From Qipengyuania spongiae (GTDB lineage: Bacteria > Pseudomonadota > Alphaproteobacteria > Sphingomonadales > Sphingomonadaceae): a DNA stretch of 64,000 bases. How positions within the stretch are numbered: position 1 is the first letter of the stretch; every line of letters begins with the position of its first letter. Below, piece by piece: positions 3,307 through 13,584 of the stretch. The position numbers and the translations under genes are program-made. The notes below the pieces were generated by a model. That model made no database searches. It saw nothing but the letters and a program-made list of their open reading frames with translations, and had not been told where the DNA came from. The stretch covers positions 2,180,501 to 2,244,500 of the forward strand of contig NZ_CP092471.1 in NCBI RefSeq assembly GCF_026168555.1, given 5' to 3'.

Positions 3307-3335
3307 TTGCGAATCGCGAAGTGATGGAACATAAG
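3307..3335 (+). promoter_or_regulatory. Predicted sigma70 promoter of imuA, probably leaderless
   Basis: A -35-like TTGCGA at 3307-3312 is followed by a 17-base spacer and a -10-like CATAAG at 3330-3335. Only eight bases separate the -10 from the imuA ATG (3344), so transcription should begin at or within a couple of bases of the start codon. The geometry matches the promoter at 7201-7229. The hexamers are seen directly; the start site is inferred. Confidence 0.55.
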
Positions 3336-3341
3336 AGGAAC
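3327..3341 (+). promoter_or_regulatory. LexA operator (SOS box) of imuAB
   Basis: GAACATAAGAGGAAC is an exact match to GAAC-N7-GAAC, the reverse complement of the alphaproteobacterial LexA site GTTC-N7-GTTC. It covers the -10 element and ends two bases before the imuA ATG. ImuAB cassettes are established LexA targets, which supports the call. Confidence 0.9.
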
Positions 3342-3343
3342 AA

Positions 3344-4123
3344 ATGAGTCGTTCCGCCATGCCTTTCGAGACCCTCTCCCAAACCTGCGATGTGGCTGCG
3401 CTGGCCGCACGGCGCAGCACGCGCTGGCGGACCGGGTTGGCCGCGGTCCAGGGGGCACCGTGCCACAGCGAGATTTTCGCTTCGGGGCGGGAGGCGAGCG
3501 GCGCGGGGGCGGCGCTGGCGCTGGCGCTCGACGACTGGCACCATGCCCCGCGCGGGGAAGGGCAGGAGGCGGAAGACCGCCGCGCGGTGCTGTGGGTACA
3601 GACGCGTGAGGCGGTGCGGATCGGCGGCGTTCCCTATCGCCCAGGCCTCCCGCGCGATCTGCGTCACCGGGTGATCCATGTTCTGGCGGAAAGAACGGAA
3701 GATGCGCTGTTCGCTCTGGAGGAAGGGGTGCGCTGCCGCGAGGTCGCTTTCGTGATCGGCGAAGTAGCAGGTAATCCCAAAACGCTGGATTTCACTGCCT
3801 CGCGCCGCCTGACGCTGTCGGCACAGCGTCATGGCGTGCCACTTTATCTCGTCCGGCTCGATGCCGTGCATGACCTGTCTTCGGCGCGGATGCGGTGGGA
3901 TGTGGTGGCGAGCCCGTCGCCCGCTCCACGCTGGAACGCTGCCGCGCCAGGAACGCCGTCGTGGCGGGCCGAGCTTTTCCGCGCGCGAGGCCATGCGCCC
4001 GGGCAATGGGTTCTGCGCGGCGAGGGAAGCCGCCTGCTGGCGGAGCGCGCCGAGAGCGGGGAGGCCAACCACGGATGGGCGGCGGGACTGCACCCGGCAC
4101 GTCCCTCCGCAACGGGACGATGA
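3344..4123 (+). CDS. imuA: Mutasome accessory protein ImuA (RecA/SulA-like)
   Basis: 259 residues. ImuA proteins are RecA-related accessory factors that work with the inactive Y-family protein ImuB and the polymerase DnaE2 in damage-induced mutagenesis. A RecA-like core is suggested by HSEIFASGREASGAGAALAL, VLWVQTREAVRIGG and EVAFVIGEVAGNP (about residues 40-150). There is no intact Walker A, as usual for ImuA. The ATG at 3344 lies two bases after a LexA box, and the stop overlaps the imuB start (ATGA at 4120-4123). The family assignment rests on sequence style plus the direct imuB coupling. Confidence 0.9.
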   Translation: MSRSAMPFETLSQTCDVAALAARRSTRWRTGLAAVQGAPCHSEIFASGREASGAGAALALALDDWHHAPRGEGQEAEDRRAVLWVQTREAVRIGGVPYRPGLPRDLRHRVIHVLAERTEDALFALEEGVRCREVAFVIGEVAGNPKTLDFTASRRLTLSAQRHGVPLYLVRLDAVHDLSSARMRWDVVASPSPAPRWNAAAPGTPSWRAELFRARGHAPGQWVLRGEGSRLLAERAESGEANHGWAAGLHPARPSATGR

Positions 4124-5739
4124 GCGGGTTGGCAGCGGAGGAAGCGGGAGCAGGGGTAACAGGCGCAGGCAAGCCGCAAACCCGATCACGCCGCCGCATC
4201 CTGTCCATCTGGCTGTGCTCTCTGGCGATGGATCGCTGGCGAGCGGTCAACGATGCCCTCGACGATCCGCGCCCTCTCGTCCTCATCGCCGATACGGCGC
4301 ACGGCCCCCGCATTGAAGCGGTGAGCGCGGCCGGCGCGGCGGCAGGCGCGCGGCGCGGCATGATGCTGGCCGATGCCCGCACCCTGTGCCCCGGCATCGC
4401 CACCGCGCCCTTCGATCCGGCCGGCGATCTGGACTTTCTGGAGAAGCTCGCGATCTGGGCGATGCGCTGGGGCCCATGGTCGGCAATGGACGCGCCCGAT
4501 GGGCTGCTGGTCGATGTCACCGCCGTGCCGCACCTGTTCGGAGGAGAGGAGCGGCTGCTGGCAGATGTCCATACCGCTTTCGCGCGGCGCAACCTAGCGA
4601 TCCGCAGTGCGATTGCGCCGACCGCCGGAGCAGCTTGGGCGCTGGCGCATTTCGGGCCGGAACGCACGATTTTGGAAGATCTCCACGACATGAAGGCCCG
4701 CCTTGCCGACCTGCCGGTGGCGGCCCTGCGGCTCGACGAAGATGTGACGGGGGTGCTCCGTCGCCTCGGTCTCAAGCGGCTCGGCGAACTGACCGGCGTT
4801 CAGGACGCGGGCGGCGGCCGCGACGCGATCCAGCGCCGTTTCCGCAATCGTCGATCACCTGCCGCCAATCCGCTGATCCGTCTCGACCAGCTCCTCGGCC
4901 GCGTTCCCGAACCTCTGTTGCCGGTCATTCCCCGGCAGATGCCGCTGGTCCAGCGCCGGTTGATGGAGCCCATCCGCCATCGCGCGCTGCTCGATCAGGT
5001 GATGCGCGATCTCGCGCTCGACATGGTGCGCGAGCTGGAAGGCCGGGCGGAAGGAGCGCGGCGGCTCGAACTGGGCCTGTGGCGGGTCGACGGGGAGGTG
5101 GTGCTTCGCCGTCTCGAATTCGCCGCTGCCACGCGCGATGCCGACCATATATGCCGGCTGTTCTCCGCCCGGCTTGACGATGTCGAAGCGGGGTTCGGGA
5201 TCGAGATGGTGCGCTTGCGAGCAAGCTGGGCCGAGCCGCTTTCGCTGGAGCAGGAGGATTTCGAGGCGGCGGCGGCGTATCACGGCACCTCGCTCGCGAC
5301 CTGCATCGACAGGCTCACTGTCAGGCTGGGCGCGAAGGCTGTCCGTCGCCCGGTGCCCTTTGCCAGCCACATCCCCGAACGCGCGCAGCAATGGCAGCCG
5401 CCCCTAGGGCCTGAGCGGAGTTCGCAAGCAATCTTCGAATTCCACGACAGGCCGCTGAAGATGCTGGAGAAAAGCGAGTGTATCGCCGTGCTATATGCCA
5501 CGCCCGACGGCTATCCCAAGCGCTTCCGCTGGCGCGGCGCAGTGCATGAGGTGGCACGTGTCGAAGGGCCCGAACGGATCGCGCCCGAATGGTGGCGCGA
5601 ACGCGGCAATGCGCGTTTGCGCGACTACTACCGGATCGAGGACGAGACGGGTCGGCGCTACTGGATATACCGGCAGGGGCTGATCGGCGACGGGCGGGGC
5701 GGGGCGCCCGCCTGGTATCTGCACGGATTATGCGCCTGA
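4120..5739 (+). CDS. imuB: ImuB, catalytically inactive Y-family polymerase homologue
   Basis: 539 residues from the ATG that overlaps the imuA stop; the frame is open further upstream but that part lies inside imuA. ImuB bridges DnaE2, ImuA and the beta clamp. The protein has a Y-family layout, but the metal-binding DxD of motif I is replaced by ILSIWLCSLAMDRW (about residues 27-40). The SxDE-type motif III is replaced by GLLVDVTAVPHLFGGEE. This is the usual ImuB signature of lost polymerase activity. The C-terminal block DRPLKMLEKSE, FRWRGAVHEV and RRYWIYRQG is conserved in ImuB. It is translationally coupled to imuA. dnaE2 is not adjacent but lies about 4.2 kb downstream. Confidence 0.95.
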   Translation: MSGLAAEEAGAGVTGAGKPQTRSRRRILSIWLCSLAMDRWRAVNDALDDPRPLVLIADTAHGPRIEAVSAAGAAAGARRGMMLADARTLCPGIATAPFDPAGDLDFLEKLAIWAMRWGPWSAMDAPDGLLVDVTAVPHLFGGEERLLADVHTAFARRNLAIRSAIAPTAGAAWALAHFGPERTILEDLHDMKARLADLPVAALRLDEDVTGVLRRLGLKRLGELTGVQDAGGGRDAIQRRFRNRRSPAANPLIRLDQLLGRVPEPLLPVIPRQMPLVQRRLMEPIRHRALLDQVMRDLALDMVRELEGRAEGARRLELGLWRVDGEVVLRRLEFAAATRDADHICRLFSARLDDVEAGFGIEMVRLRASWAEPLSLEQEDFEAAAAYHGTSLATCIDRLTVRLGAKAVRRPVPFASHIPERAQQWQPPLGPERSSQAIFEFHDRPLKMLEKSECIAVLYATPDGYPKRFRWRGAVHEVARVEGPERIAPEWWRERGNARLRDYYRIEDETGRRYWIYRQGLIGDGRGGAPAWYLHGLCA

Positions 5740-5793: not shown

Positions 5794-6621
5794 TCAGTTC
5801 CGCCCGAGGAAATCAAGCAGATCGTCACCCAACCGTTCAGTCTGCGTGGCAAAGACGGCATGCGGCTCGCCGTCATATTCGATCAGTCTGGCGCCCGGCA
5901 CCTTCTCGGCGACCTGCCGCCCGGTCGCATCGATTGGAACGGTCTCGTCCTTGGTGCCATGGATCACTAGTGTCGGCACGTTGAAGCTCGACAGGTCGGG
6001 GCGGAAATCGGTGGTGGCGAAGGCGGCGGCAGACTGGAGCGTCGCGTACTGGCTGGCCATCATCGTGGTCGTCCACGCCCAATGCTTCTCCTCGTCGTAC
6101 ACCTTGTCACGCAGAACGCCGTCACCGTAAAAATCCTTGAAGAAGCCGGTGAAGAAATGGCGGAAGTTGGTCTTCATCCCCTCGGTCATTTCGTCGAAGG
6201 TCGATTGCGGCACGCCGTCCGGATTGTCATCGGTCTTCAGCATGTAGGGCACGACCGAACTGACCAGCACCGCCTGCGTCACCCCCTTGCCCGAATGGCG
6301 CGACATGTAGCGGGCAATTTCGCCGCCGCCCATGGAGAAGCCGACCAAAGCGACGTTCTCGGTCGCGCCGGTTTCCTTCATGACGTCGGCCAGATCGTCA
6401 GAGAAGGTATCGTAGTCGTAACCAGACGGCGCGTGGTCTGAGCGCCCGAAACCGCGGCGGTCGTAAGCGATCGCGCGATAGCCGTTGTCGGCCAGCTTCA
6501 TCATGATCGGGTCCCAGCTGTCGGCCGAAAGGGGCCAGCCATGAATCAGGATCACCGGGCGGCCTTGTCCCAGCTCCTTGTAGCGCAAGCGAGTTCCGTC
6601 ACGGGTCGTAAGATTGGGCAC
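5794..6621 (-). CDS. Alpha/beta hydrolase (non-heme haloperoxidase/arylesterase type)
   Basis: 275 residues from a GTG at 6621, chosen because AAGGAG sits six bases upstream and family members begin near this point (xLTTRDGTRLRYKELG). A longer frame to 6657 lacks a good ribosome-binding site. The family motifs are the oxyanion-hole segment LIHGWPLSADSW, the nucleophile elbow GFSMGG (Ser), an acid in HGTKDETVP and a catalytic His in GEPHAVF. Members annotated as chloroperoxidases usually act as esterases or perhydrolases, and the true substrate is unknown. It lies convergent to imuB inside the mutasome island, on the opposite strand. Confidence 0.92.
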   Translation of the reverse strand: MPNLTTRDGTRLRYKELGQGRPVILIHGWPLSADSWDPIMMKLADNGYRAIAYDRRGFGRSDHAPSGYDYDTFSDDLADVMKETGATENVALVGFSMGGGEIARYMSRHSGKGVTQAVLVSSVVPYMLKTDDNPDGVPQSTFDEMTEGMKTNFRHFFTGFFKDFYGDGVLRDKVYDEEKHWAWTTTMMASQYATLQSAAAFATTDFRPDLSSFNVPTLVIHGTKDETVPIDATGRQVAEKVPGARLIEYDGEPHAVFATQTERLGDDLLDFLGRN

Positions 6622-6713
6622 GGGGGTCTCCTTGGAAGGTTGCGAATATGCTTTCACAACATTGGGGGAGTTCCTTGCGTTCCGCGATTATTGTCGGCGA
6701 GTATGCTGCCGCG

Positions 6714-7100
6714 TCACTCGCAGTCGACGAGCGTCAGGCGTCCTTCGCGCCGCCGGCCCATGGGGATTCGGCCGAAATTCGCCACCGACTGCTCTCGCTC
6801 CTCGACCATTTCGGCGGTGCGGCGAATGATTTCGAGCGGGATGGGCCGGTCGAACTGGAGGCCACAGCTGCCCGGCCTCGACCACATCACCCGGCAATAT
6901 TGCTCCTCGTCCGACCAGGCGAGGAAGCCGGAGGTGCCGGTTATCGGAAGGTTGCTGCCTTCGAAACGCGCGCCGGTCTGCGAGAGGTCTGACAGGCGCC
7001 CGTCGCGGTTTCCGCCGGTCATGCGCAGACGCGCGGCTGTGTCGATGACCCAGCGTTGAACCTTGCGTCGGTCAGCTCCGACAGCGTGATGGTGCGACAT
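6714..7100 (-). CDS. PilZ-domain protein
   Basis: 128 residues from the ATG at 7100, preceded by AAGGA nine bases upstream. An upstream TTG (7154) gives only low-complexity sequence and is disfavoured. Cyclic-di-GMP-binding PilZ features are present: an arginine cluster DRRKVQRW near the N-terminus and the DxSxxG-type motif DLSQTGARFEG about 25 residues later. A short beta-barrel-like domain (FLAWSDEEQYCRVMWSRPGSCGLQF) follows. No output domain is attached. It is divergent from the radical-SAM gene, so the LexA box at 7219-7233 lies in their shared upstream region. Confidence 0.85.
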   Translation of the reverse strand: MSHHHAVGADRRKVQRWVIDTAARLRMTGGNRDGRLSDLSQTGARFEGSNLPITGTSGFLAWSDEEQYCRVMWSRPGSCGLQFDRPIPLEIIRRTAEMVEEREQSVANFGRIPMGRRREGRLTLVDCE

Positions 7101-7200
7101 TGTCCCGTATCCTTGTCCCGCGCCTTTCGCAGAACGAAGTGAAACCTTGGCCAATCGACATGGTTAATTCCCAACACCCTTTCGCGGATCAAAAGAATCC

Positions 7201-7229
7201 TTGGCGACAAGGGCGAGAGAACATATAAG
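7201..7229 (+). promoter_or_regulatory. Predicted sigma70 promoter of the radical-SAM/udgX/dnaE2 unit, probably leaderless
   Basis: TTGGCG (7201-7206), a 17-base spacer and TATAAG (7224-7229) form a good -35/-10 pair. The ATG at 7236 begins only six bases after the -10, so the transcript is predicted to start at the start codon itself. The AAGG that looks like a Shine-Dalgarno at 7227-7230 would then not be transcribed. The spacing is the same as in the imuA promoter. Confidence 0.6.
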
Positions 7230-7233
7230 GAAC
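7219..7233 (+). promoter_or_regulatory. LexA operator upstream of the radical-SAM/udgX/dnaE2 unit
   Basis: GAACATATAAGGAAC is an exact GAAC-N7-GAAC match. It is identical to the imuA box at 13 of 15 positions and, like it, ends two bases before the ATG. It overlaps the -10 TATAAG, so bound LexA should block the promoter. It may also affect the divergent PilZ gene. Confidence 0.88.
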
Positions 7234-7235
7234 AT

Positions 7236-8483
7236 ATGGCTTCGCAGACCATCCTTCAAAAGCTGGAGATTCTCGCCGATGCGGCGAAATACGATGCCTC
7301 CTGCGCCTCGTCCGGCACGGCGAAAAAGAACTCGCTCGGATCGGCGAAGGGTATCGGTTCGACCGAAGGAATGGGGATCTGTCATGCCTATGCGCCGGAT
7401 GGGCGCTGCATCTCGCTGCTCAAGATATTGCTGACCAATCACTGCGTGTTCGACTGCCATTATTGCGTCAACCGCAAGAGCTCGAATGTGGCGCGCGCGC
7501 GGTTCACGCCGCAGGAGGTCGTCGATCTGACGCTGGCGTTCTACCGGCGCAATTATATCGAGGGGTTGTTCCTTTCCTCGGGCATCGTCAAAAATTCGAA
7601 CCACACGATGGAACAGATCGTCGAAGTCGCCCGCATTCTGCGGGAAGAGCATGATTTTCGCGGTTACATTCATCTCAAGACCATTCCCGAGGCGGATGCC
7701 GAGATCGTCCATCAGGCGGGGCTCTATGCCGATCGCGTTTCGATCAATGTCGAACTGCCGACCGATGCGGGCCTGACCCGCCTCGCGCCTGATAAGGACG
7801 CCCGCCAGATCGAAGGCGCGATGGGCAATGTGAGAAGCGATCTTGCCGAGGCGAAGGATGCGAAGAAGCGGTTCCGCCACGCTCCGCGCTTCGCGCCTGC
7901 CGGGCAGTCGACCCAGATGATCGTCGGCGCCGACGCGGCGACCGATGCGGATATCGTCGGCAAGGCGAGCAGGCTCTACGACAATTTCCGTCTACGCCGA
8001 GTATATTACAGCGCGTTCAGCCCGATTCCGGATGCAAGCGCCGTGCTGCCGCTGAAACGTCCTCCGCTGATTCGCGAGCATCGCTTGTACCAGTCCGACT
8101 GGCTGATGCGCTTCTATGGCTACAAGCCGACCGAGGTGATGCAAGCGACCGAAGCGGACGGCAATCTGCCGCTCGACATCGATCCCAAGCTCGCCTGGGC
8201 GCTCAAGTTTCGCGACAGCTTTCCGGTCGACGTCAACCGCGCGACCAAGGAACAATTGCTGCGCGTGCCTGGGCTGGGGGTAAAAGCGGTCCACAAGATC
8301 CTTGCAAGCCGGCGGCACCGCACGCTGCGGCTCGACGATGTGGCGCGGCTGACCCTCTCGATCACCAAGGTGCGACCGTTCATCTGCACGGTCGACTGGC
8401 GCCCCGTGATGCTGACCGATCGCGCCGATCTTCGCAGTCTGCTTGCGCCTCGGACTGAGCAGCTCGAACTGTTCGCAGCATGA
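7236..8483 (+). CDS. Putative DNA modification/repair radical SAM protein (UDG-linked, SplB-like)
   Basis: 415 residues. The radical SAM [4Fe-4S] motif is a CxxxCxxC with C70, C74 and C77 inside HCVFDCHYC. The C-terminal part (about residues 325-370) has a helix-hairpin-helix DNA-binding motif, NRATKEQLLRVPGLGVKAVHKIL. The protein matches the family described as a radical SAM protein linked to a uracil-DNA glycosylase-like partner, related to spore photoproduct lyase. The lesion it acts on is not known. The stop overlaps the next gene by four bases (ATGA at 8480-8483), so the two are translationally coupled. The LexA-controlled promoter directly upstream argues for induction by DNA damage. 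Confidence 0.9.
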   Translation: MASQTILQKLEILADAAKYDASCASSGTAKKNSLGSAKGIGSTEGMGICHAYAPDGRCISLLKILLTNHCVFDCHYCVNRKSSNVARARFTPQEVVDLTLAFYRRNYIEGLFLSSGIVKNSNHTMEQIVEVARILREEHDFRGYIHLKTIPEADAEIVHQAGLYADRVSINVELPTDAGLTRLAPDKDARQIEGAMGNVRSDLAEAKDAKKRFRHAPRFAPAGQSTQMIVGADAATDADIVGKASRLYDNFRLRRVYYSAFSPIPDASAVLPLKRPPLIREHRLYQSDWLMRFYGYKPTEVMQATEADGNLPLDIDPKLAWALKFRDSFPVDVNRATKEQLLRVPGLGVKAVHKILASRRHRTLRLDDVARLTLSITKVRPFICTVDWRPVMLTDRADLRSLLAPRTEQLELFAA

Positions 8484-9925
8484 CAGCGTTCCAACATGTC
8501 GAGGCCGGCACCTATTACGTGACAGAGATGCCGGAGCCGGACGATTTCGAGTTCTGGCGGGAGCGGGCACGGGCTCTGGTCCAGTGCGAGGTGCCGCCCG
8601 ACCGGATCGCCTGGATCGAGCCGGGGGGCAGTGGCGATCTGTTCGCGCATGGCGAGAGGCGCAGCCCGATGCCGGAGGAAGGCGCACGGCCCGTCCGGGC
8701 CAACCGGCGCTTCGTCAGTCTGGCGAAAAACGCGATTCTTCATTCCGACCCTGATCGCTTCGCGCTGCTCTACCGCCTGTTGTGGCGGCTCCAGTCCAGT
8801 CCGCGGATCATGGAGGACAAGGCCGATCCCGACGTGCGGCGCATTGAGGAACTCGACAAGAACGTCCGGCGCGACAGCCACAAGATGCACGCCTTCGTCC
8901 GCTTTCGCCTGATCGAGGAAGAGAGCGAGGATGGCGAACCGCGCGAACATTACGTCGCCTGGTTCGAACCCGAGCATCACATCCTGCGCGCCAATGCCGG
9001 GTTCTTCATGCGGCGTTTCGCCAACATGCACTGGTCGATCCTCACGCCGCAGGGGAGTCTGCATTGGGATACCGAAACCATGCGCGAAGGTCCGCCAGCC
9101 GAGCGGTCCGATGCGCCGGGCGGCGATCCGATGGAGGATCTATGGCGCAGCTATTACGCGTCCATCTTCAACCCCGCGCGTTTGAAGATCGGGGCCATGC
9201 TCAAGGAGATGCCCCGAAAATACTGGAAGAACATGCCCGAGGCCGCGCTCATTCCCGAGCTCGTGGCAGGCGCACAGAAGCGGGAGAGCACGATGGTCGA
9301 GGCAGGAACGCTCGAATTCGAGGAACGGCCCGAAACGCTGGCGGCGATCGACAGAGCGATCCATGCCTGCCGCAAATGTCCGATCGGGGAGCTCGATAAC
9401 GAGGCGGTGATGGGCGAGGGGCCGCGCGATGCCGCGCTGATGATCGTCGGCGAGCAGCCGGGCGATCAGGAGGATCAGGCGGGAAAACCCTTCGTCGGCC
9501 CGGCCGGGCAATTGCTGAACCAACATCTCGAACGGGCCGGGATCGATCGCGGCGCGGCCTATGTCACGAATACGGTGAAGCATTTCAAATATGTCCAGCG
9601 CGGCAAGCGTCGGCTGCACCAGTCGCCGGGCGCGAAGGAAATCGACACCTGCCGCTGGTGGATCGAGAGCGAGCGCGCGATCGTGCAGCCAAAGCTGGTG
9701 CTGGCAATGGGTGCCAGTGCGGCGCGCGGGATGCTCGGCAAGACAGTGAGCATTTCCAAGGCGCGCGGCGCACCGATCCCGCTCGAGGATGGCAGCGAGC
9801 TGTGGATCACGGCGCATCCGTCCTATCTTCTGCGACTGGACGGTGCGGCGCGCGAGGAACAGGCGCGCTTGTTCGACGCCGACCTTGCCGCAGTGCGGGA
9901 GCGGTTGGAGGAATTGCAGGCATGA
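8480..9925 (+). CDS. UdgX-type uracil-DNA binding protein fused to an N-terminal DUF4130-like domain
   Basis: 481 residues in two parts. Residues about 1-250 match the DUF4130 (probable DNA metabolism) domain that is known to pair with the radical SAM partner. Residues about 290-480 are a family-4-like uracil-DNA glycosylase domain, with motif A GEQPGDQED (G324-D332), motif B HPSYLLR (H446) and CxxC (C297, C300). The loop GKRRLHQSP carries KRRLH (K376-H380). In UdgX proteins this KRRxH loop supplies the His that forms a covalent bond with uracil-containing DNA instead of releasing it. The residue after TNTVK is His where family 4 enzymes usually have a Cys. The gene is coupled to the upstream radical-SAM gene and lies 56 bases before dnaE2. 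Confidence 0.92.
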   Translation: MTAFQHVEAGTYYVTEMPEPDDFEFWRERARALVQCEVPPDRIAWIEPGGSGDLFAHGERRSPMPEEGARPVRANRRFVSLAKNAILHSDPDRFALLYRLLWRLQSSPRIMEDKADPDVRRIEELDKNVRRDSHKMHAFVRFRLIEEESEDGEPREHYVAWFEPEHHILRANAGFFMRRFANMHWSILTPQGSLHWDTETMREGPPAERSDAPGGDPMEDLWRSYYASIFNPARLKIGAMLKEMPRKYWKNMPEAALIPELVAGAQKRESTMVEAGTLEFEERPETLAAIDRAIHACRKCPIGELDNEAVMGEGPRDAALMIVGEQPGDQEDQAGKPFVGPAGQLLNQHLERAGIDRGAAYVTNTVKHFKYVQRGKRRLHQSPGAKEIDTCRWWIESERAIVQPKLVLAMGASAARGMLGKTVSISKARGAPIPLEDGSELWITAHPSYLLRLDGAAREEQARLFDADLAAVRERLEELQA

Positions 9926-9981
9926 GGCCCGGCGGCTTCACACGATGCTCGTAATGACAGACTTAGGGGCGACCTTACACC

Positions 9982-12900
9982 ATGCCCGAAAACGACCATC
10001 AGATACCCAAGCGTACTCTGGCCGTCGATCCGGACACGATCGACCCGCCGGCGCGCGCTCCCTTCGTCGAACTCGGACTCGTTTCCTGCTTCAGCTTCCT
10101 GCGCGGTGCATCGGATGCGGTGGACATCGTCAAGCAGGCTTATGATCTCGGCTACGATGCGGTCGGGATCGCGGATGCCAACACCATGGCCGGGGTGGTG
10201 CGTGTCCACACCGAAGCGAAAAAGCTCAAGCTGAAGCCGGTTATCGGGTGCCGGATAGAGACTGTCGAGGGTCTGGCCTTCCTCGCCTATCCGCAGAACC
10301 GCCCCGCCTATGGCAGGCTGTGCAAGCTCATCAGCGCGGGGCGGATGTCCACGCTCGACGACAAATGGCAGGCCAAGGGACAGTGCGATATCACGCTCGC
10401 GATGCTGGCCGAACACAGCAAGGATCTGCAGCTCATCCTCCTGCCGCCGCGCGATCTCGACGAGTGCTTCACCCTCGCGGTGCCGAGCAATGTGGTCGCG
10501 TTTCCATCCGGCAGATCGGGTGTGGATGCAGAGAAAGATTTGGTCCGCGCTCAACTGGCTTCCCAAGAAATAACCAAAACTTTCGAAGATCTTGTTCCGC
10601 ATATCGCAGACCTTCTCCCAGCATTTCGCCATATTGCTGCGAGCTATCTCCACACCGGCGACGATGTCGTGCGCATCGAACGGCTCGATGCTCTGGCCAA
10701 GGCGAGCGGCCTCACGATCCTTGCCACCAACGACGTGCATTATGCCACACCCGATCGGCGGCCGTTGCAGGATGTAATGACGGCGATCCGGCACAAGACC
10801 ACCGTCGCCGCAGCAGGTCATCTGCTGCATGGCAATGCCGAACGCTATCTCAAGACGCCCAAAACGATGGTTCGCCTGTTCGATCGCTGGCCTCACGCCA
10901 TTTCCGCTGCGCGGGCGGTGGCGGATGCATGTCGCTTCAGTCTCGACGATCTGAAATACGAATATCCGGAGAAAATCTATCCCGACGGGATGACCCCGCA
11001 GAGACATCTCGAACAGCAGGTCTGGCATCGTGCCCGGCACGACCGTTACCCAAGGGGCTTGCCACCCGTGATCAAGCGGACGATCAAGCGTGAATTGCGG
11101 CTGATCCGCCAACTTGATCTCGCGCGCTATTTCCTAACCATCAAGGATATCGTCGATTTTGCCCGGGGGCAGGACATATTGTGTCAGGGGCGGGGCAGCG
11201 CAGCCAATTCGGCGGTCTGCTACTGCCTCGGCATCACCAATGTCGATCCGGCGAAGCATCAGCTGTTGTTCGACCGCTTCATCTCGAAGGAGCGCAAGGA
11301 GCCGCCCGATATCGACGTCGATTTCGAGCACGAACGGCGCGAAGAGGTGATCCAGCACATTTACGACACATACGGTCGCCACCGCGCCGGACTGTGCGCC
11401 ACGGTGATTCATTACCGCCCGCGCATGGCGATCCGCGAGGTCGGCAAGGCCATGGGCCTGACCGAGGATGTCACCGCCGCGCTAGCCAAAACGGTGTGGG
11501 GCGGATGGGGCAAGGAAATCAGCGATCGGCACGCAGCCGAAACTGGTATGGACGTGACCGATCCGCTTCTCAGGCGTGTTCTCAAACTCACCGAGCAAAT
11601 GATTGGAATGCCGCGACATCTTTCGCAACATGTCGGTGGTTTTATCCTGACCGACGGAGCGCTGACCGAAACCGTGCCGATCGGCAACGGGGCCATGCCC
11701 GATCGCAGCTTCATCGAATGGGACAAGGACGATATCGACGATCTCGGCATTCTCAAGGTCGACGTGCTCGCGCTGGGAATGTTGACCTGCATAAGGAAAT
11801 GCTTTGGCCTGCTCGAAAACCATCACGAGCGGCCGCTGACCCTGGCCACTCTGCCGCGCGAGGATGCCGCCACTTACGACATGCTGTGCAAGGGAGATTC
11901 CCTGGGCGTGTTCCAGGTGGAAAGCCGGGCACAGATGAACATGCTCCCACGGTTGCGTCCGCGCATTTTCTACGATCTCGTCGTGCAAGTGGCCATCGTG
12001 CGACCCGGCCCCATCCAGGGCGACATGGTGCACCCCTATCTCAAGCAGAGGCGACGCGCGCGCGAGGGGCACACCGATTTCCATCTACCGAGCCCTTCGC
12101 CGGAGCACGGCCCGGCGAACGAGCTCTCTTCCATTCTGGAGCGCACCTACGGCGTCCCTATCTTCCAGGAACAGGCGATGAAGATCGCGCTCGACGCCGC
12201 CAAGTTTACGCCCGCGGAGGCGAACCAGTTGCGCAGGGCGATGGCCACCTTCCGCAGCCGTGGCATGGTCGACGAGCATCAGGACAAGATGGTCGGCCGG
12301 ATGATCGCGCGCGGCTACGATCCCGAATTCGCCGAGCGTTGCTTCAATCAGATCAAGGGCTTCGGCGAATACGGCTTTCCCGAAAGCCACGCGGCGAGCT
12401 TCGCGCATCTGGTGTATGTCTCGAGCTGGCTCAAATGTCATTACCCGGCGGCCTTCGCCTGCGCGCTGCTCAATTCACAGCCGATGGGCTTTTACGCTCC
12501 GGCGCAGATCGTGCGGGACGCCGTGGAGCACGAGGTGGAAGTGTTGCCGGCTGACGTCAATCTGTCAGGATGGGACTGCACGCTGGAGCAAGCTGACGTC
12601 ATGCCGTCGCGGGGGGGCGGGCCTGTCGCCCTCCGCCTTGGCCTGCGCCAGATCGACGGACTTCCCGAAGCAGTGGCTGCAAGGCTGGTGGGCGAACGTG
12701 AGAAGCATGGTCCCTACCGCGACGTAAGGGCCTTGCGTGATCGCACGGGGATATCGCCCTCGCATGTCGAGCGGCTCGCACAGGCCGATGCTTTCGGATC
12801 GCTGAGGCTTTCCCGGCGGCAGGCCCTGTGGGACGCGCGCAGCCTGATGAACGCGCCCGACCTGCCGCTCTTCGCCGCAGCGGCCGCGCGTGACGAGGGG

Positions 12901-13584
12901 GCGGAAAAGACGCGCACGCAGCTTCCGGCGATGCCGCTCTCCGAAGAGGTGGTCGCCGATTATCAGACCACGCGCCTCAGCTTGAAGGCGCATCCGATGG
13001 CCTTCTTGCGCGCCAACCTTGCCGAGCGCGGCTTCGTGCGCGCCTGCGACCTGCGCGAAAGGAAATTCCGCTCCATGGTCCATGTCGCCGGCGTGGTGCT
13101 GATCCGCCAGCGGCCGGGCTCGGCCAAGGGGGTCTGCTTCATCACGCTGGAGGACGAGACCGGCGTGGTCAATCTGGTCGTCTGGCCCGATCTCAAGGAG
13201 AAGCAGCGGCGCGTCGTCATGGGCGCCCGGCTGATGGAAGTGCGCGGCCGGGTGGAGTATGACGACGAGGTAATCCACGTCATCGCCCAGCACATGAGCG
13301 ATGCCAGCCACGAGCTCTATCGCCTGTCGGACGACATGCTCAATGCGCCGGTCGCGCGTGCCGATCACGTGAACTCGCCTCTGCCGTCTTCGTCTTCGGG
13401 CAAGCTCAATCCGCGCGACGATCTGCGTGAAGGGGCGGATGATCCTTACAAGCCTGTCGAACCGTGGGAGGAGCCGCCCGCCGGCAATCGCGAATGTGGT
13501 TTTCATGGTCCGCAATCGGGCGGCCATCCGCGCAATGCGAGGATCATTCCCCGGATACTCCCGGCCTCGCGGGACTTTCATTAA
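9982..13584 (+). CDS. dnaE2: Error-prone DNA polymerase III alpha subunit homologue DnaE2 (ImuC)
   Basis: 1200 residues, slightly longer than the usual 1050-1130. The N-terminal PHP domain opens with VELGLVSCFSFLRGASDA. The palm carries the catalytic acidic triplet PDIDVDFEH (D443, D445, D447). A helix-hairpin-helix region follows, with an OB fold at about residues 1030-1070. The C-terminus HPRNARIIP...SRDFH is the DnaE2 signature. DnaE2 carries out translesion synthesis with ImuA/ImuB. Residues about 180-220 (nucleotides about 10520-10640) look like an AT-richer insertion. No LexA box is seen in the 56-base gap upstream, so transcription from the LexA-controlled promoter at 7201 is likely. 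The start is the ATG after a weak ribosome-binding site. Confidence 0.96.
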   Translation: MPENDHQIPKRTLAVDPDTIDPPARAPFVELGLVSCFSFLRGASDAVDIVKQAYDLGYDAVGIADANTMAGVVRVHTEAKKLKLKPVIGCRIETVEGLAFLAYPQNRPAYGRLCKLISAGRMSTLDDKWQAKGQCDITLAMLAEHSKDLQLILLPPRDLDECFTLAVPSNVVAFPSGRSGVDAEKDLVRAQLASQEITKTFEDLVPHIADLLPAFRHIAASYLHTGDDVVRIERLDALAKASGLTILATNDVHYATPDRRPLQDVMTAIRHKTTVAAAGHLLHGNAERYLKTPKTMVRLFDRWPHAISAARAVADACRFSLDDLKYEYPEKIYPDGMTPQRHLEQQVWHRARHDRYPRGLPPVIKRTIKRELRLIRQLDLARYFLTIKDIVDFARGQDILCQGRGSAANSAVCYCLGITNVDPAKHQLLFDRFISKERKEPPDIDVDFEHERREEVIQHIYDTYGRHRAGLCATVIHYRPRMAIREVGKAMGLTEDVTAALAKTVWGGWGKEISDRHAAETGMDVTDPLLRRVLKLTEQMIGMPRHLSQHVGGFILTDGALTETVPIGNGAMPDRSFIEWDKDDIDDLGILKVDVLALGMLTCIRKCFGLLENHHERPLTLATLPREDAATYDMLCKGDSLGVFQVESRAQMNMLPRLRPRIFYDLVVQVAIVRPGPIQGDMVHPYLKQRRRAREGHTDFHLPSPSPEHGPANELSSILERTYGVPIFQEQAMKIALDAAKFTPAEANQLRRAMATFRSRGMVDEHQDKMVGRMIARGYDPEFAERCFNQIKGFGEYGFPESHAASFAHLVYVSSWLKCHYPAAFACALLNSQPMGFYAPAQIVRDAVEHEVEVLPADVNLSGWDCTLEQADVMPSRGGGPVALRLGLRQIDGLPEAVAARLVGEREKHGPYRDVRALRDRTGISPSHVERLAQADAFGSLRLSRRQALWDARSLMNAPDLPLFAAAAARDEGAEKTRTQLPAMPLSEEVVADYQTTRLSLKAHPMAFLRANLAERGFVRACDLRERKFRSMVHVAGVVLIRQRPGSAKGVCFITLEDETGVVNLVVWPDLKEKQRRVVMGARLMEVRGRVEYDDEVIHVIAQHMSDASHELYRLSDDMLNAPVARADHVNSPLPSSSSGKLNPRDDLREGADDPYKPVEPWEEPPAGNRECGFHGPQSGGHPRNARIIPRILPASRDFH

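What the first reader, a model, noticed from the sequence alone, without database searches (positions are those of the whole stretch)
7201..13584. A LexA-controlled unit joining a radical-SAM repair enzyme, a UdgX-type uracil cross-linker and DnaE2
The radical-SAM gene and the udgX-type gene overlap (ATGA), and dnaE2 follows after 56 bases with no promoter or LexA box visible in that gap. One GAAC-N7-GAAC operator covers the -10 at the head. Established knowledge: the radical-SAM and UDG-like genes are a known pair, UdgX proteins bind uracil-DNA covalently, and dnaE2 is SOS-induced with imuAB. What looks new is the placement of the pair inside the mutasome locus, so that uracil capture and error-prone gap synthesis could be induced together. 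One inferred model is that covalent UdgX capture marks or shields deaminated sites while the ImuAB-DnaE2 mutasome fills gaps.
Basis: partly seen in the sequence, partly recalled or inferred. Interest (0 to 1): 0.85.

Follow-up and report, generated by a model that had tools for sequence, protein, structure and literature searches.

The report
SOS operon: clamp-tailed rSAM, UdgX, DnaE2
In bacteria related to Erythrobacter the only detected copy of a mutagenic DNA polymerase is made from the same damage-controlled gene set as a protein of a type known to bond permanently to uracil in DNA and an enzyme whose tail looks built to dock on the replication clamp, which gives a concrete way to test what these two little-understood proteins do.

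Summary
One promoter with a LexA-type box over its -10 precedes rSAM (TIGR03916), a DUF4130-UdgX fusion and dnaE2. It is not a one-off: 30 of 149 surveyed family genomes (19 genera) and 66 of 80 nearest named relatives have it. A box precedes rSAM in 30 of 30 and dnaE2 in 0 of 30. Linked dnaE2s form one clade, so the linkage probably arose once; some lineages keep the pair but have another type of dnaE2. In another family the pair is divergent from imuA-imuB-dnaE2 with one box-like site between them (7 of 8 rSAM genomes). In one genome only a box, UdgX and dnaE2 are left at the locus.

New here: the rSAM protein ends in a beta-clamp-binding-like motif (QLELF; canonical in 93 of 100 family sequences, Q..L-type in 20 of 20 distant ones). 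SOS control of the pair was already in print. Best reading: a LexA-induced, clamp-docked uracil/AP-site module made with DnaE2. Co-expression is well supported by comparison; joint action is inferred. Induction, clamp binding and cross-linking are untested.

The parts
7201..7206 (+). -35 element of the operon promoter (TTGGCG), predicted
   Evidence: profile of 94 related upstream regions: T 90%, T 43%, G 86%, C 61% at box -18, -17, -16, -14; sequence
7219..7233 (+). LexA-type operator GAACATATAAGGAAC; its spacer holds the predicted -10 (TATAAG, 7224-7229)
   Evidence: a site within 200 nt before rSAM in 98 of 100 relatives; recA and lexA of this genome also have GAAC-N7-GAAC sites
7236..8483 (+). 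radical-SAM protein TIGR03916 (rSAM_link_UDG), CX3CX2C at C70/C74/C77, C-terminal HhH region
   Evidence: ATG at or near the predicted transcription start (leaderless mRNA), inferred
8460..8474 (+). codons of the C-terminal beta-clamp-binding-like motif QLELF
   Evidence: disordered in the model
8480..9925 (+). DUF4130 (TIGR03915) - UdgX (TIGR03914) fusion protein, 481 aa
9605..9619 (+). R-loop codons KRRLH with the histidine equivalent to UdgX H109
   Evidence: motif definition from the abstract of PMC10359453
9982..13584 (+). dnaE2 / imuC error-prone DNA polymerase, the only match of the genome at E <= 1e-200
3327..3341 (+). second LexA-type operator, in front of imuA
3344..4123 (+). imuA (weak family match, 20.7 bits against a cut-off of 150; position and conservation support it)
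4117..5739 (+). imuB (IMS + DUF6504); start at 4117 inferred from the translation
5794..6657 (-). alpha/beta hydrolase lying between imuB and the operon (not part of it)
   Evidence: variable between relatives
6714..7154 (-). PilZ-domain protein lying between imuB and the operon (not part of it)
   Evidence: variable between relatives

Best explanation
A three-gene SOS operon. LexA sits on the -10 of one promoter and blocks it; when LexA is cleaved, a probably leaderless mRNA makes the rSAM protein, DUF4130-UdgX and DnaE2 together, while the neighbouring imuA-imuB operon is released by its own box. The rSAM protein docks on the beta clamp by its C-terminal QLELF tail and works with DUF4130-UdgX on uracil, or on a pyrimidine product related to it, in gapped DNA behind stalled forks. 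UdgX excises the base and covalently holds the abasic site, so that it is not cut, and DnaE2 with ImuAB fills the gap across or beside it. Shown by comparison: the gene unit, the box, the promoter layout, the intact UdgX signature, the conserved clamp-like tail. Inferred: LexA binding, damage induction, leaderless start, clamp binding, cross-linking by this protein, joint action with DnaE2. Unknown: the substrate of the rSAM protein and the role of DUF4130.
Against: No expression, binding or mutation data. Most genomes that have the pair do not link it to dnaE2: 71 of 101 in the family; 63 of 70 outside it have neither arrangement, judged by eye (11 of the 70 have no dnaE2 at the threshold). 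One dnaE2 clade means that the 30 cases are probably one event, not 30. The f156 rSAM tails end QLGFGF, not a canonical clamp motif (7 of 7). DUF4130-UdgX and DnaE2 show no Q[LMFI][SDE]LF (0 of 30 each), so direct contact of these two with the clamp has no sequence support. G039 (L135) has Asn in place of the R-loop His. The generic promoter scan does not see the promoter.
Confidence: 0.5

Rival explanations
1. Shared regulation only. dnaE2 was placed, once, behind an SOS promoter already used by the rSAM-udgX pair. The proteins are needed under the same condition but do not act together.
For: One dnaE2 clade (support 100). The pair has a GAAC-N7-GAAC site before rSAM in 68 of 70 unlinked genomes too. 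Pair and dnaE2 can be separated: rSAM tree, linked label 12 changes; dnaE2 next to imuA-imuB elsewhere in 8 of 8 unlinked loci read (L103-L110).
Against: A second, different arrangement in family f156; UdgX alone with dnaE2 in G136; the unit stays closed while its flank shuffles.
Confidence: 0.33
2. The pair is a direct or excision repair system for a pyrimidine lesion (SplB-like idea of the literature): the rSAM protein reverses or alters a thymine product, the UDG half removes the altered base, and DnaE2 is only a gap filler.
For: PMC3765255 calls DUF4130 a predicted mutagenesis-related enzyme associated with SplB-like rSAM photolyases and UDGs 'which might modify thymines' (section 5). The HhH region suggests DNA as substrate (weak HhH matches).
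Confidence: 0.12
3. Anti-phage or other non-repair role of an SOS-induced uracil-DNA binder.
For: A covalent uracil binder could block uracil-rich foreign DNA (inference).
Against: No PADLOC match at E <= 0.01 for any of the three proteins; conserved position beside imuAB.
Confidence: 0.03

Closest known systems
COG1573-COG4277 (UDG + rSAM) SOS operon of Bacteroidetes, reported also for Verrucomicrobia and Alphaproteobacteria (Caulobacter)
   Same: Same gene pair under LexA; the authors suggest that SOS UDGs address misincorporation by error-prone polymerases (PMC8565304 passages; its two source papers are not held)
   Different: There described as a two-gene operon; here dnaE2 is the third gene of the unit, and imuAB is next door
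imuA-imuB-dnaE2 (imuABC) mutagenesis cassette
   Same: Same polymerase and accessory genes, LexA-controlled; split cassettes are known (PMC3901139 passages)
   Different: dnaE2 is split off into a second LexA-type unit headed by rSAM-udgX
UdgX of Mycobacterium smegmatis
   Same: Motif A GEQPG, R-loop KRR.H, HPS motif B, fold
   Different: Fused behind DUF4130 and placed with an rSAM protein and DnaE2; activity not measured
DUF4130 / SplB-like rSAM / UDG context in the SOS network of PMC3765255
   Same: Same domains already linked to SOS mutagenesis (passages and section 5)
   Different: The passages and figure legend read give neither the rSAM-udgX-dnaE2 order nor a clamp motif; the figure itself and the additional file were not seen

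Membership tests
UdgX (TIGR03914) | Score over the curated cut-off; closer to UdgX than to family-4 UDG | tested here: met
   316.8 bits against 189.95; profile of the fusion: UdgX 234 bits, family-4 UDG 150 bits
UdgX (TIGR03914) | Motif A GEQPG, R-loop KRR.H with the cross-linking His, motif B HPS | tested here: met
   window protein GEQPG, KRRLH, HPS; H380 invariant in 50 of 50 aligned, a set that does not hold the one exception L135
UdgX (TIGR03914) | Covalent capture of the abasic site after uracil excision | not testable with these tools
   needs purified protein
TIGR03916 rSAM_link_UDG | Score over cut-off, CX3CX2C cluster motif, pairing with a UDG gene | tested here: met
   574.1 bits against 343.5; C70, C74, C77 invariant in 63 of 63; UDG gene downstream in 94 of 101
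Spore photoproduct lyase (SplB) | SPL fold and lesion-reversal activity | tested here: inconclusive
   not among the 50 rows shown; absence from the rows does not exclude it; activity not testable
DnaE2 / ImuC | PRK05672 score; linked imuA-imuB; no clamp motif of its own | tested here: met
   1392.9 bits against 939; imuAB upstream; no Q[LMFI][SDE]LF in 30 of 30 linked
LexA regulon | Conserved operator over the promoter | tested here: met
LexA regulon | Damage induction, LexA binding | not testable with these tools
   no expression or binding data held
Beta-clamp-binding proteins | Q..L[FL]-type motif (recalled definition) in a flexible terminal tail, conserved | tested here: met
   exception QLGFGF in 7 of 7 f156 loci
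Beta-clamp-binding proteins | Binding to DnaN | not testable with these tools
   no complex modelling offered

The most novel reading that the evidence does not exclude
The rSAM protein is a clamp-docked subunit of an enlarged mutasome. Through its C-terminal QLxLF tail it brings DUF4130-UdgX to the beta clamp beside ImuAB-DnaE2, so that uracils exposed in SOS gaps are excised, capped and bypassed by DnaE2 in one complex. This would turn deaminated cytosines into C-to-G changes instead of strand breaks, and would give UdgX and TIGR03916 a shared physiological role.
Probability: 0.25. Interest if true: 0.85.

Novelty: new variant of a known kind. Interest (0 to 1): 0.64.

Why it matters
The physiological role of UdgX is described as largely unknown (PMC10359453 passage), and I met no tested function for TIGR03916 or DUF4130 in the texts read. 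A genome group in which UdgX and the only detected DnaE2 share one promoter, a locus that keeps UdgX alone with dnaE2, and a conserved clamp-like tail on the rSAM protein give direct genetic and biochemical tests: induction, epistasis, mutation spectrum and clamp pull-down. If the proteins act together, uracil capture becomes part of error-prone gap repair. If they do not, dnaE2 has simply been placed under another SOS gene pair.

Tried and rejected
Bare GAAC-N7-GAAC as evidence: rejected, chance level in the window and 116 sites in the genome against 48 for the reversed pattern. Regulon by neighbours of other boxes: among the 12 sites read (6 of the 9 GAACATA sites and 6 others) I recognised no core SOS gene, only a radA-like ORF from recall; most neighbours were unfamiliar, so they do not prove LexA specificity. 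The ninth GAACATA site (L284) was only scanned for its box. recA and lexA carry GAAC-N7-GAAC sites with other spacers. ImuB clamp motif: my simple pattern (Q, two residues, L/I/M, F/W/Y) finds none in the window's ImuB; a looser one gives QMPLV-like strings in 8 of 29 linked loci; undecided. SPL kinship of the rSAM protein: not seen in the rows shown, undecided. DUF4130 fold: the rows shown cover only the UDG half; it was not folded or searched alone. Anti-phage role: no PADLOC match. Linkage elsewhere: class sample, 2 of 12 rSAM genomes among 240, both of the own family; outside the family in the phylum sample 7 of 70, all in f156, placed by eye and read.

Rows dropped and limits: the weak rSAM matches of about 19-22 bits were left out; the partial G116 was kept there and dropped. 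L053 and L098 were dropped from the dnaE2 tree (short readings; one search shows 1 TAG inside the dnaE2 match of G036, the genome of L098). One of 100 rSAM rows was left out of the tree. G120 and G009 are in the dnaE2 tree twice. Of the unlinked genomes only those with held loci are in that tree. L094 (frameshifted udgX) was left out of A1 by hand; A1 and A2 hold 49 of 101 and 62 of 124 readable relatives, chosen by spread and length, plus the window. The 20 distant rSAM genes are 20 of 70 outside the family, chosen by me to spread over families; no chance control was run for their boxes. The 987 control ORFs are all ATG-started frames of 150 aa or more on both strands, many not real genes. 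Exact GEQPG is missing in 1 and exact HPS in 2 of the readable fusion proteins.
Full report
WHAT IS THERE. The window (G000:C1:2180501-2244500 of a 2.93-Mb genome) carries imuA and imuB at 3344-5739, two minus-strand genes of other kinds (alpha/beta hydrolase, PilZ), then three plus-strand genes: a radical-SAM protein (TIGR03916), a DUF4130-UdgX fusion (TIGR03915 + TIGR03914) and the error-prone polymerase DnaE2. The imuA call rests on a weak match (20.7 bits) plus position. rSAM and udgX overlap by ATGA; udgX and dnaE2 are 56 nt apart, without a box or a promoter-like site between them; the same promoter scan also misses the operon promoter. The nearest named record found is an Erythrobacter MAG with 97% identity in the fusion protein; one genome of the same genus (G146) has a contig of the same length as one of Qipengyuania flava DSM 16421. 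The window is therefore an Erythrobacter/Qipengyuania-type alphaproteobacterium (inference).

IS THE ORDER REAL AND COMMON? In 149 genomes of the family, 100 have the rSAM gene over its cut-off, 134 have dnaE2 at E <= 1e-200 and 110 have the UDG domain at E <= 1e-40. Of 101 rSAM places used (100 plus one partial), 94 have the UDG gene downstream and 30 have dnaE2 next on the same strand. These 30 lie in 19 genera. The distance between the rSAM and dnaE2 matches is 1528-1803 nt in all 30, and the next nearest same-contig pair is 75 kb apart. Each of the 30 has one dnaE2 match at that threshold. Of the 80 best named relatives, 66 are linked (Erythrobacter, Qipengyuania, Aurantiacibacter, Tsuneonella, Porphyrobacter, Croceicoccus and others) and 14 are not.

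ONE ORIGIN, LATER LOSSES. In a dnaE2 tree of 67 rows (FastTree), the 29 linked dnaE2s included and that of G136 fall into one clade of 31 (support 100), which also holds G014, a genome without an rSAM match. In an rSAM tree of 99 rows the linked label needs 12 changes, at least 5 of them forced by well-supported branches: unlinked rSAM genes nest among linked ones. In the 8 unlinked genomes whose dnaE2 was read over a longer stretch (L103-L110), imuA, imuB and dnaE2 lie together (8 of 8); 6 of these 8 have an rSAM gene inside the clade that holds all linked ones and a dnaE2 outside the linked clade. The simplest history is one joining, then repeated loss or replacement of dnaE2 with retention of the pair; the direction is inferred. 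This weakens any argument from the number 30 and helps the rival of shared regulation.

CONTROL REGION. A GAAC-N7-GAAC site lies within 200 nt before rSAM in 30 of 30 linked and 68 of 70 unlinked genomes; shuffling gives 0.7% and 0.4%. In the 94 regions with the site in GAAC orientation it starts 17 nt before the start codon in 81. Their profile shows a -35-like element (T 90%, T 43%, G 86%, C 61% at box -18, -17, -16, -14) and TATAA at box +5 to +9 (98, 97, 73, 80, 44%), a 17-bp spacing, so the operator contains the -10, and the predicted start of transcription falls on or near the ATG (leaderless mRNA, inferred). No site lies within 250 nt before dnaE2 in 29 of 29 linked relatives, nor in the window, nor in 66 of 66 named linked loci. 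imuA has its own site in the window and upstream in 28 of 28 readable linked relatives. recA and lexA of this genome carry such sites too, with other spacers. In 20 rSAM genes chosen from the 70 outside the family, 11 have the GAAC-N7-GAAC form (either orientation), 6 have CTGT-N8-ACAG (the form that I recall for gamma- and betaproteobacterial LexA) and 3 have neither (no chance control). SOS control of the pair therefore seems old, and agrees with published reports for Bacteroidetes, Verrucomicrobia and Alphaproteobacteria (PMC8565304, passages read).

SELECTION ON THE UNIT. imuA and imuB lie upstream in 28 of 29 linked relatives (the 29th contig starts too close), imuB at 49-6283 nt from rSAM; 24 of 28 distances are 300 nt or more. 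The neighbourhood is rearranged, yet the three genes stay together: udgX-dnaE2 gaps are 1-15 nt in 25 of 29 linked relatives and at most 137 nt, and at most 293 nt in the 66 named ones, where about a quarter are near 100 nt. In G136 there is no rSAM match; a box identical to the window's, GAACATATAAGGAAC, stands before a 219-aa UdgX ORF with KRRLH and no DUF4130 half, followed 45 nt later by dnaE2. At that locus UdgX, not the rSAM protein, is what is left; whether DUF4130 exists elsewhere in G136 was not searched.

A SECOND ARRANGEMENT. In the phylum sample of 398 genomes, 84 have the rSAM gene, 70 of them outside the own family, and 59 of the 70 have dnaE2. In 7 of these 70, all in family f156 (which has 8 rSAM genomes), rSAM-udgX is divergent from imuA-imuB-dnaE2. 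In each of the 7 loci the only GAAC-N7-GAAC match is GAACATATCATGAAC (or its complement) between the two. The organisms are unnamed here. The class sample (240 genomes) gave 12 rSAM genomes and linkage in 2, both of the own family. The two different arrangements are the best sign that the pair and the mutasome are tied by more than chance.

THE CLAMP-LIKE TAIL. The rSAM protein ends ...EQLELFAA. Q[LMFI].LF lies in the last 15 residues in 93 of 100 family proteins; of the other 7, 4 end in a QxSLxL/QxALxL-like form, 1 in QLSLL, and 2 are truncated readings. Shuffled tails give 0.045%, and 0 of 987 other ORFs of the window and linked loci have it. The rSAM of all 80 named loci has it (80 of 80). 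In 20 distant rSAM proteins the tail is Q..LF in 12, Q..LL in 5, and QMALW, QMLLI or QMALAL in one each. In an alignment of 63 sequences the Q is the only invariant residue after residue 360. The tail is disordered in the model. The motif stays where rSAM and udgX do not overlap (L079, L082, L083, L095, L096), so the overlap does not explain it. Against it: 7 of 7 f156 loci end QLGFGF. That Q-x-x-L-F tails bind the beta clamp is established knowledge that I recall; binding was not tested. One search for radical SAM with sliding clamp and clamp-binding motif found no paper.

HOW IT MOST LIKELY WORKS. Damage cleaves LexA; the operon makes rSAM, DUF4130-UdgX and DnaE2 together, and imuAB comes from next door. 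The rSAM protein docks on the clamp and works with UdgX on uracil or a related pyrimidine product in gaps. UdgX holds the abasic site, and ImuAB-DnaE2 completes synthesis. Only the first sentence rests on comparison; the rest is inference. Context from papers, passages only: UdgX authors propose that it protects abasic sites from breakage and call its role largely unknown (PMC10359453); in M. tuberculosis ImuB, not ImuC, carries the clamp motif, and in Caulobacter G:C to C:G changes depend on imuB and imuC (PMC3901139); SOS uracil-DNA glycosylases were suggested to address misincorporation by error-prone polymerases (PMC8565304).

WHAT IS KNOWN AND WHAT IS NEW. Known: the pair, its SOS control, a proposed tie of SOS UDGs to error-prone polymerases, the imuABC cassette and its split forms, UdgX chemistry, and a context link of DUF4130, rSAM and UDG to SOS mutagenesis (PMC3765255; section 5 and passages read, figure not seen). 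I found no print of the rSAM-udgX-dnaE2 operon or the divergent arrangement (searches; open-access library only; the Caulobacter regulon and Verrucomicrobia papers are not held). Papers otherwise opened, passages only: PMC10776899, PMC1839093, PMC12700426; PMC9578287 held none of the terms. I rate it a new variant of a known kind.

Noticed in passing
L261-L267: In unnamed family f156 the rSAM-udgX pair and imuA-imuB-dnaE2 are divergent with a single GAACATATCATGAAC between them; rSAM tails there end QLGFGF.
   Followed up: yes
L100 (G136), 9889-10670: LexA-type box before a stand-alone UdgX and dnaE2, without rSAM or DUF4130 at the locus; minus-strand ORFs fill the space up to imuB.
   Followed up: partly
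L135 (G039): The fusion protein has KRRLN in place of KRRLH: the cross-linking His is replaced by Asn in a protein that keeps GEQPG and HPS.
   Followed up: no
L094, L098, L099: Apparently broken copies in linked loci: frameshifted udgX (G079), an in-frame TAG in the dnaE2 match (G036), shortened rSAM reading (G026). Decay or sequence errors.
   Followed up: no
L190: A contig filed as a Salinicola MAG carries an Erythrobacteraceae-like copy of the whole unit (85% identity in the fusion protein); probably a binning error.
   Followed up: no
L273, 279-293: A GAACATAATGGGAAC box stands between two divergent ORFs of this genome, one resembling (from recall) phage Gp37/Gp68-type proteins; the genes were not identified by a search.
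   Followed up: no
L274, around 2311-2325: A GAACATTTGTGGAAC site lies between an ORF that looks like radA (from recall; partial recA-family match) and a long divergent ORF.
   Followed up: no
window 3344-5739: The window's ImuB shows no canonical clamp motif by my simple pattern, although ImuB is the clamp anchor in Mycobacterium.
   Followed up: partly
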